From Leptolyngbya sp. KIOST-1 (GTDB lineage: Bacteria; Cyanobacteriota; Cyanobacteriia; Phormidesmidales; Phormidesmidaceae), in assembly GCF_000763385.1 (NCBI RefSeq), contig NZ_JQFA01000002.1:2542001-2606000 (forward strand): DNA of 64,000 nucleotides, in the 5' to 3' direction. Shown here in pieces: positions 12,528 through 13,350 of the stretch; position 1 is the first letter of the stretch, and every line of letters starts with the position of its first letter. The notes beneath the pieces were generated by a model, which was not told the origin of the DNA, did no database searches, and worked only from the letters and a program-made list of their open reading frames with translations. Position numbers and translations under genes: made by a program.

Positions 12528-12819
12528 TCGGTCTACTTCATGGGCGACAACCTGCTGGAAATCTCCCTGGCCCGCTTCCTTACCCGCTGTGGCATGACGG
12601 TGCAGGAAATCGGCATCCCCTATATGGATAAGCGCTACCAGGCGGCGGAGCTGGCCCTGCTAGAGAAAACCTGCAACGAAATGGGCACGCCCCTACCCAA
12701 AATTACCGAAAAGCCCGACAACTACAACCAGATCCAGCGCATTCAAGAGCTGCACCCTGATCTGGTGATTACGGGCATGGCCCACGCCAACCCGCTGGAG
12801 GCGCGGGGCATCAGCACCA
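12528..12819 (+). repeat. chlN internal direct duplication, left copy
   Basis: 292 bp identical to 13059-13350, offset 531 bp. Both are the same coding segment of chlN, starting at TCGGTCTACTTCATGGGCGA. Confidence 0.92.
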
Positions 12820-13058
12820 GCTGGGGAATGGTCTACGTCAGCAAGGGTCTATGTCTACTCTGGCCACCACCATCGAAGCGATTCTGTACCTCAAAGGGCA
12901 GCCCCTCGACATCGGCAAACTGGCCGAACTGGCCCGCTGCGATCGCGAAGACGTTGAAGAAGGGCTGATCGAGCTGATGGACGAGTACGCCCACCGCGAC
13001 GGTGCCCTCGAAATCGTCGAAACCGTCGATGGCTACTGCCTCCAGCTCAAAGAACGCT
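12820..13058 (+). repeat. scpB fragment inserted in chlN
   Basis: 239 bp identical to 5675-5913. It includes 31 bp upstream of the scpB start and its first 208 coding bases. An scpB-frame ORF therefore begins at 12851 and runs on into duplicated chlN out of frame. It is a duplicated piece and not a second scpB gene. Confidence 0.92.
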
Positions 13059-13350
13059 TCGGTCTACTTCATGGGCGACAACCTGCTGGAAATCTCCCTG
13101 GCCCGCTTCCTTACCCGCTGTGGCATGACGGTGCAGGAAATCGGCATCCCCTATATGGATAAGCGCTACCAGGCGGCGGAGCTGGCCCTGCTAGAGAAAA
13201 CCTGCAACGAAATGGGCACGCCCCTACCCAAAATTACCGAAAAGCCCGACAACTACAACCAGATCCAGCGCATTCAAGAGCTGCACCCTGATCTGGTGAT
13301 TACGGGCATGGCCCACGCCAACCCGCTGGAGGCGCGGGGCATCAGCACCA
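13059..13350 (+). repeat. chlN internal direct duplication, right copy
   Basis: Second copy of 12528-12819; at 13351 the sequence continues into the unique 3' end of chlN. Confidence 0.92.

What the first reader, a model, noticed from the sequence alone, without database searches (positions are those of the whole stretch)
12528..13350. scpB fragment embedded in chlN between two copies of a chlN segment
Bases 12820-13058 equal 5675-5913 (scpB and its leader), and 12528-12819 equal 13059-13350. The result breaks chlN: translation enters scpB out of frame and stops at 12966. Excising 531 bp restores a full-length chlN. If real, dark chlorophyll synthesis would be lost and the strain would depend on light-dependent reductase. 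If not, it marks a local assembly error. The junctions have at most one base of clear microhomology, and the source lies only 7 kb away.
Basis: seen in the sequence. Interest (0 to 1): 0.75.

Follow-up and report, generated by a model that had tools for sequence, protein, structure and literature searches.

The report
Assembly error that splits a gene
A chlorophyll-making gene looks broken by a piece of a neighbouring gene, but the break is one of several wrong joins of the same kind in this draft genome, so the gene is most likely intact in the living cyanobacterium.

Summary
It is very probably not biology. In the 2.0 Mb of this contig that I could read there are about a dozen such patches. 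Seven are chains of pieces copied from donors several kb apart; all 12 piece-to-piece jumps counted in them run leftward, 6.4-11.8 kb, median 8.0 kb, with near-blunt joins. That is the mark of reads crossing the junction of circularised ~8 kb fragments. chlN's A-B-A' form recurs at two other places on this contig and one on contig C4. A second patch in this window (17089-18676 = 24362-25949) replaces the middle of an insertion sequence that is whole on C4. The genome is very likely Leptolyngbya sp. KIOST-1: Roche 454, GS De Novo Assembler, eight scaffolds, "in silico finishing". None of 99 relative chlN loci examined has the insert. Leaving out 531 bp gives an intact 477-codon chlN. Raw reads, not available here, would decide.

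The parts
11535..13499 (+). chlN as assembled, interrupted; intact 477-codon frame if the 531 bp are left out
   Evidence: TIGR01279 DPOR_bchN 585.7 bits, cut-off 419.95, on ORF 11535-12968; ORF list; empty-site join
12528..12819 (+). A: first copy of the 292-bp chlN segment (end of the left contig in the artefact reading)
   Evidence: exact repeat with 13059-13350
12820..13058 (+). B: 239-bp copy of the scpB leader and start, from 7145 bp upstream
   Evidence: exact repeat with 5675-5913; blunt joins
13059..13350 (+). A': second copy of the 292-bp chlN segment (start of the right contig in the artefact reading)
   Evidence: exact repeat with 12528-12819
5675..5913 (+). donor of B at its native place: scpB leader and first 208 nt
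   Evidence: Pfam SMC_ScpB and TIGR00281 on ORF 5613-6260; collinear with G009 and G012
17089..18676 (+). second patch in this window: 1588-bp copy of 24362-25949 inside an insertion-sequence gene; makes a probably spurious second S14 gene
24362..25949 (+). donor of the second patch: end of a 174-aa ORF, ribosomal protein S14 gene and downstream sequence
   Evidence: S14 domain found in the copy at 17880-18182, which is identical
16750..17088 (+). front part of the insertion-sequence gene, cut by the second patch
   Evidence: 100% match to C4:242395-242783
18677..18854 (+). end part of the same insertion-sequence gene; the 1088 bp that lie between the two parts on C4 are missing here
   Evidence: 100% match to C4:243872-244055; uninterrupted frame on C4

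Best explanation
The interruption of chlN is an artefact of sequencing and assembly. The strain was most likely sequenced from a circularised long-span paired-end library of about 8 kb. A read crossing the circle's junction runs off the right end of a fragment and goes on at its left end about 8 kb upstream, so it looks like a leftward jump in direct orientation with a blunt join. In the chlN case the left contig reached 12819 and was extended by such a junction into scpB (5675-5913). The finishing step then butted this tail against the right contig, which begins at 12528, without noticing that the two contigs overlap by 292 bp. The real chromosome most likely runs straight through chlN. Shown: the patches, the jump direction and sizes, the uninterrupted homologues, and what the KIOST-1 paper says of platform and finishing. 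Inferred: the identity of the strain, that an 8-kb library was used, and at which step the tail was joined.
For: (1) The same assembly carries more such patches. In 2.0 Mb of contig C2 seven are chains, e.g. C2:145063-146550 = 375 bp from +23153, 305 bp from +16170, 809 bp from +7117; C2:310270-313175 = pieces from -6830, -15585, -23853, -34809. (2) 12 of 12 piece-to-piece jumps counted in these chains are leftward, 6354-11761 bp, mean 8263, median 7987; chlN's 7145 and the second window patch's 7273 lie inside this range. (3) chlN's A-B-A' form recurs at C2:2350065 (406/104 bp), C2:2999210 (219/132 bp) and C4:241179 (558/145 bp, B also at C4:250994). (4) The pieces are exact copies apart from one mismatch in C2:310270-313175 and a few bases beside a T run in C2:368142-369315; interior joins share 0-3 bases. 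(5) 9 of the 11 places whose flanks I tested abut multicopy sequence, where assemblies break; the exceptions are chlN and C2:2999210. (6) 99 of 99 relative loci have uninterrupted chlN. (7) The KIOST-1 genome paper states 454, GS De Novo Assembler v2.6, eight scaffolds, in silico finishing, 13 contigs, 6,320,172 bp; the held genome has 13 contigs and 6,320,123 bp. (8) Of the control stretches, G012 (0.4 Mb) shows no chain and G009 (0.4 Mb) only rows from one repeat gene family with jumps of both signs.
Against: The genome paper does not state that a paired-end library was made; scaffolds imply it. No loxP-type linker remains in the genome at up to 3 mismatches (other linker types were not searched), so the chimeric reads must have lost the linker or never had one. 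Some pieces (1588 bp in the window patch, 1243 bp in C2:310270-313175) are longer than the mean read of 654.5 bp. Each chain also has one rightward return jump (7.4-34.8 kb), which the library does not explain; it must be the contig join itself. chlN is single-copy by DNA search, so why a contig ended there is not explained. Two leftward edge jumps (2030 and 5336 bp) fall below the interior range. In the chain C2:264486-265763 a 196-bp stretch matches only in inverted orientation. No chain lies in C2:400001-800000. An A-B-A' event alone carries no direction information. The held genome is 49 bp shorter than the published figure, so its identity is inferred.
Confidence: 0.93

Rival explanations
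1. A real, recent rearrangement: replication template switching (FoSTeS/MMBIR-like) copied 239 bp of scpB into chlN and returned 292 bp upstream of its departure point, destroying chlN.
For: The A-B-A' anatomy is what two template switches would leave; copies are identical, as a recent event would be.
Against: The same signature is repeated along the contig with one direction and one size class inside chains, which template switching does not predict; the chlN joins are blunt; relatives examined are intact.
Confidence: 0.04
2. A real but mixed state in the culture: some chromosome copies carry the insert and others are intact, the 292-bp direct repeats allowing precise loss by recombination.
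For: 292-bp perfect direct repeats flank the insert and loss of 531 bp restores the frame exactly.
Against: Nothing here distinguishes it from the artefact, and it needs the first rare event to be real; same arguments as above.
Confidence: 0.02
3. Insertion by a mobile element acting at chlN, for example the neighbouring REP-associated tyrosine transposase.
For: A RAYT gene with REP-like palindromes lies 187 bp downstream of chlN, and two relatives (G013, G012) carry a RAYT between chlN and a partial chlN copy.
Against: The insert is plain scpB sequence; a 292-bp duplication is far longer than the target duplications usual for insertion sequences (recalled); no REP-like palindrome is seen at the joins.
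Confidence: 0.01

Closest known systems
Chimeric joins from circularised long-span (mate-pair / 454 paired-end) libraries
   Same: Direct orientation, leftward jump of one library span when read left to right, blunt joins, found where contigs end. That such libraries carry chimeric fragments is described in PMC3459883 (passages); the circularisation step and chimeric noise in PMC3441570 (passages).
   Different: Those passages speak of read pairs and insert-size noise, not of tails built into finished contigs; the patchwork seen here is not described in the passages I saw.
Template-switch rearrangements (FoSTeS/MMBIR; recalled)
   Same: Copied nearby segment flanked by a duplicated departure segment.
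   Different: Single direction and one size class inside chains, blunt joins and about a dozen cases in one contig do not fit.
Intact chlN of Nodosilinea/Leptolyngbya relatives (e.g. N. nodulosa PCC 7104)
   Same: 94-96% protein identity over the 428 residues before the insert for the eleven closest loci; same gene order from scpB to chlN in G009 and G012.
   Different: No insert in any of the loci examined.

Membership tests
Circularised-library / contig-joining artefact | Several instances in the same assembly | tested here: met
   7 chains, 2 single-piece patches and 3 A-B-A' events (chlN among them) in 2.0 Mb of C2, plus one A-B-A' on C4; none of the chains in C2:400001-800000
Circularised-library / contig-joining artefact | Jumps in the same sense, one size class near a library span | tested here: met
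   12 of 12 interior jumps leftward, mean 8263, SD 1666, median 7987 bp; leftward edge jumps 2030-9126 bp; one rightward return jump per chain
Circularised-library / contig-joining artefact | Blunt joins and near-identical copies | tested here: met
   interior joins share 0-3 bases (6 bases unmatched at one join of C2:2999210); pieces exact but for one mismatch and a few bases by a T run
Circularised-library / contig-joining artefact | Not seen in relatives' assemblies | tested here: met
   G012 0.4 Mb: no chain. G009 0.4 Mb: 35 rows, all from one repeat gene family at 3708-3717 kb, 24 rightward and 11 leftward. Only two relatives, part of each, were tested
Circularised-library / contig-joining artefact | Linker remnant at joins | tested here: not met
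   No loxP-like site in the genome at up to 3 mismatches; a linker trimmed away would also give this
Circularised-library / contig-joining artefact | A paired-end library was made | tested here: inconclusive
   Paper names 454 and eight scaffolds but no library span; an 8-kb 454 Titanium paired-end library is documented for another genome of the time (PMC3751514, passages)
Circularised-library / contig-joining artefact | Raw reads do not support the joins | not testable with these tools
   No reads held
Template-switch rearrangement (FoSTeS/MMBIR) | Microhomology at joins (recalled as usual for MMBIR) | tested here: not met
   0 shared bases at both chlN joins
DPOR loss (chlN pseudogene) | Decay or loss elsewhere in the DPOR genes | tested here: not met
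   chlL over its cut-off, chlB over its cut-off without stops, rest of chlN open; a fresh loss would show none either

The most novel reading that the evidence does not exclude
The chlN interruption is real and reversible: a mixed population in which 292-bp direct repeats let chlN switch back on by precise loss of 531 bp, while light-dependent reductase (present, C2:678024-678971) covers chlorophyll synthesis in the light.
Probability: 0.03. Interest if true: 0.5.

Novelty: not a real feature. Interest (0 to 1): 0.1.

Why it matters
Anyone reading this genome record would score chlN, and with it dark chlorophyll synthesis, as lost, and would count a second ribosomal protein S14 gene and a broken insertion sequence. 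The patchwork rule (near-exact pieces, direct orientation, about 8 kb to the left each time) is a simple way to spot such joins in other drafts of the same kind.

Tried and rejected
Chance repeats: rejected, about 5e-6 chance pairs of 25 bp are expected. An inherited insert: rejected for the relatives seen, 99 of 99 loci span the point in one alignment (12 contigs appear twice judging by equal contig length, so about 87 distinct contigs). A second, intact chlN in the genome: none found by DNA search (one search gives only this place and the scpB donor). Remaining loxP linker: none. Microhomology: none at chlN, 0-3 bases at other interior joins. Papers on this very artefact: two full-text searches listed nothing that I recognised as describing it; I opened two listed papers and saw passages only, so I do not claim that it is undescribed. 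A search for chlN with pseudogene in cyanobacteria listed six papers on algae and plastids, none opened. Rows dropped before the jump count: the triple at C2:2260274-2261729 (jumps -24489 and +24450), because its outer two parts share one partner element about 30.5 kb away and its 923-bp middle is a single-piece patch from +6081; and the three A-B-A' events (two rows each), because they hold one jump of each sign. The scan itself left out repeats under 60 bp and pairs over 60 kb apart. Not followed: short-range repeats at C2:4190, 122616, 157328, 550310, 589882, 718460, 743396, 755352, 2021923, 2130676, 2215059, 2257497, 2349384, 2632243, 2643633, 2698175, and the long pair 247798/285799.

Full report
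What is there. The window holds two exact direct repeats at the place described: 12528-12819 = 13059-13350 (292 bp) and 5675-5913 = 12820-13058 (239 bp). The order is A (a chlN stretch), B (leader and first 208 nt of scpB), A' (the same chlN stretch again). chlN (TIGR01279) opens at 11535, leaves its own sequence after 428 codons and stops at 12966-12968 inside B. Leaving out 531 bp gives one frame of 477 codons.

Relatives. A search of 38 genomes, the own one among them, found chlN-like DNA in 36; G003 (86% complete) and G023 had no match. A named scan of reference genomes puts the window beside Nodosilinea, Leptolyngbya and Phormidium tenue strains. In 99 of 99 chlN loci fetched by these two searches (19 + 80; about 87 distinct contigs) the joined chlN protein aligns in one piece across the insertion point, with at most 13 gap positions and no length difference above 60 nt. 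scpB and chlN lie in the expected order in G009 and G012. In what I could see the insert is confined to this assembly.

The same thing elsewhere in the assembly. The window lies at C2:2542001-2606000 of a 6,320,123-base genome in 13 contigs. I read 2.0 Mb of C2 and listed exact direct repeats. Seven chains of adjoining pieces stand out, six of them in C2:2000001-3200000 or C2:1-400000 with a plain order, none in C2:400001-800000. Reading each patch from left to right, the pieces come from donors that step to the left: C2:145063-146550 from 168216, 161608, 152859; C2:310270-313175 from 303440, 295524, 288499, 277955; C2:2245887-2246752 from 2239352, 2232381, 2220821; C2:368142-369315 from 392430, 384837, 378162; C2:3005828-3006908 from 3019012, 3011760; C2:2891754-2892759 from 2900640, 2894101. 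The seventh, C2:264486-265763, is less tidy: pieces from 271853, then 196 bp that match only in inverted orientation, then pieces from 279949 and 273683. A count of piece-to-piece jumps in these chains gives 12 of 12 leftward, 6354 to 11761 bp; mean 8263, SD 1666, median 7987. If direction were free, 12 of 12 has probability 0.00024 (7 of 7 chains: 0.008). The pieces are exact copies except for one mismatch in the second chain and a few bases beside a T run in the fourth, the kind of error expected of 454 reads (recalled). Interior joins share 0 to 3 bases. At the chain edges, where the true gap length is unknown, the leftward jumps run from 2030 to 9126 bp, so two of them (2030, 5336) fall below the interior range, and each chain has one rightward return jump of 7.4 to 34.8 kb.

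chlN belongs to this set. Its A-B jump is 7145 bp to the left. Its A-B-A' form, a copied segment between two copies of the departure segment, occurs also at C2:2350065 (406/104 bp, donor +7351), C2:2999210 (219/132 bp, donor +10537) and C4:241179 (558/145 bp, the 145 bp also at C4:250994, +9257). A second patch lies in the same window: 17089-18676 is a 1588-bp copy of 24362-25949, 7273 bp away. It sits inside an insertion-sequence gene whose two ends match an uninterrupted copy on C4 at 100%; on C4 1088 bp lie between the two ends, here 1588. The C4 copy itself is flanked by duplications of 558 bp and 97 bp, the latter around 465 bp that also lie beside the C2 copy. Of 11 places whose flanks I tested, 9 abut multicopy sequence. 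The exceptions are C2:2999210, with only short or diverged matches, and chlN, which is single-copy by DNA search; I cannot say why a contig ended in chlN.

Why a leftward jump of one size. In a circularised library the two ends of a long fragment are ligated, the circle is cut, and the piece over the junction is read. Such a read runs off the fragment's right end and continues at its left end, one span upstream, on either strand. Built into a contig it gives a direct copy about one span away, always in this sense, with a blunt join. A tail of this kind at the end of one contig, butted against the next contig whose start overlaps the first, gives A-B-A' as in chlN. The return jump is then the contig join itself. 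Template switching in the cell would not keep to one direction and one size class, and leaves microhomology as a rule (recalled).

Where the sequence comes from. The paper on Leptolyngbya sp. KIOST-1 (PMC5026445, whole text read) reports 13 contigs, 6,320,172 bp, G+C 59.4%, Roche 454 FLX Titanium, GS De Novo Assembler v2.6, mean read 654.5 bp, eight scaffolds and contigs recovered after in silico finishing. The held genome has 13 contigs and 6,320,123 bp, and the stretches measured are 58.6 and 59.7% G+C. The paper names no paired-end library; scaffolds imply one, and 8 kb was a span in use with this platform (PMC3751514, passages, for another organism and another sequencing centre). No loxP-type linker is left in the genome. 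Pieces longer than one read must come from several reads or from contigs used twice.

Controls. G012 (0.4 Mb) has no chain. G009 (0.4 Mb) gives 35 rows, all from one repeat gene family at 3708-3717 kb, 24 rightward and 11 leftward, most with diverged copies. So such chains are not a general feature of the genus, as far as these two stretches go.

Function. chlL, chlB and the light-dependent reductase (C2:678024-678971) score over their family cut-offs in the same assembly. Nothing seen here suggests that this strain has lost dark chlorophyll synthesis.

Verdict. Observation confirmed; artefact at 0.93. A real event, fixed or mixed, is left at a few per cent because no reads could be examined.

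Noticed in passing
17089-18676 and 24362-25949: A 1588-bp exact copy replaces the middle of an insertion-sequence gene and creates a second, probably spurious, copy of the ribosomal protein S14 gene.
   Followed up: yes
13507-14398: A REP-associated tyrosine transposase gene (13686-14258, NF047646) just downstream of chlN, flanked by four REP-like palindromic repeats (starts 13507, 13583, 14261, 14338).
   Followed up: partly
L003:2942-3107, L009:2794-2929, L005:616-982: Three relatives (G013, G012, G016) carry a partial copy of the 3' end of chlN (44, 44 and 118 codons, in frame to the last codon, about 91, 96 and 89% DNA identity to their own chlN) a little downstream of chlN; in the first two the RAYT gene lies between. 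These copies are diverged and so look real, unlike the window's.
   Followed up: partly
L242:285-1545 and L245:1592-2250 (contig C4 of the same genome): The second copy of the insertion sequence is flanked by exact duplications of 558 and 97 bp; the 465 bp between the latter equal C2:2560865-2561329, beside the window copy, so that stretch of C4 is probably a spurious copy of part of the PIN-domain gene region.
   Followed up: partly
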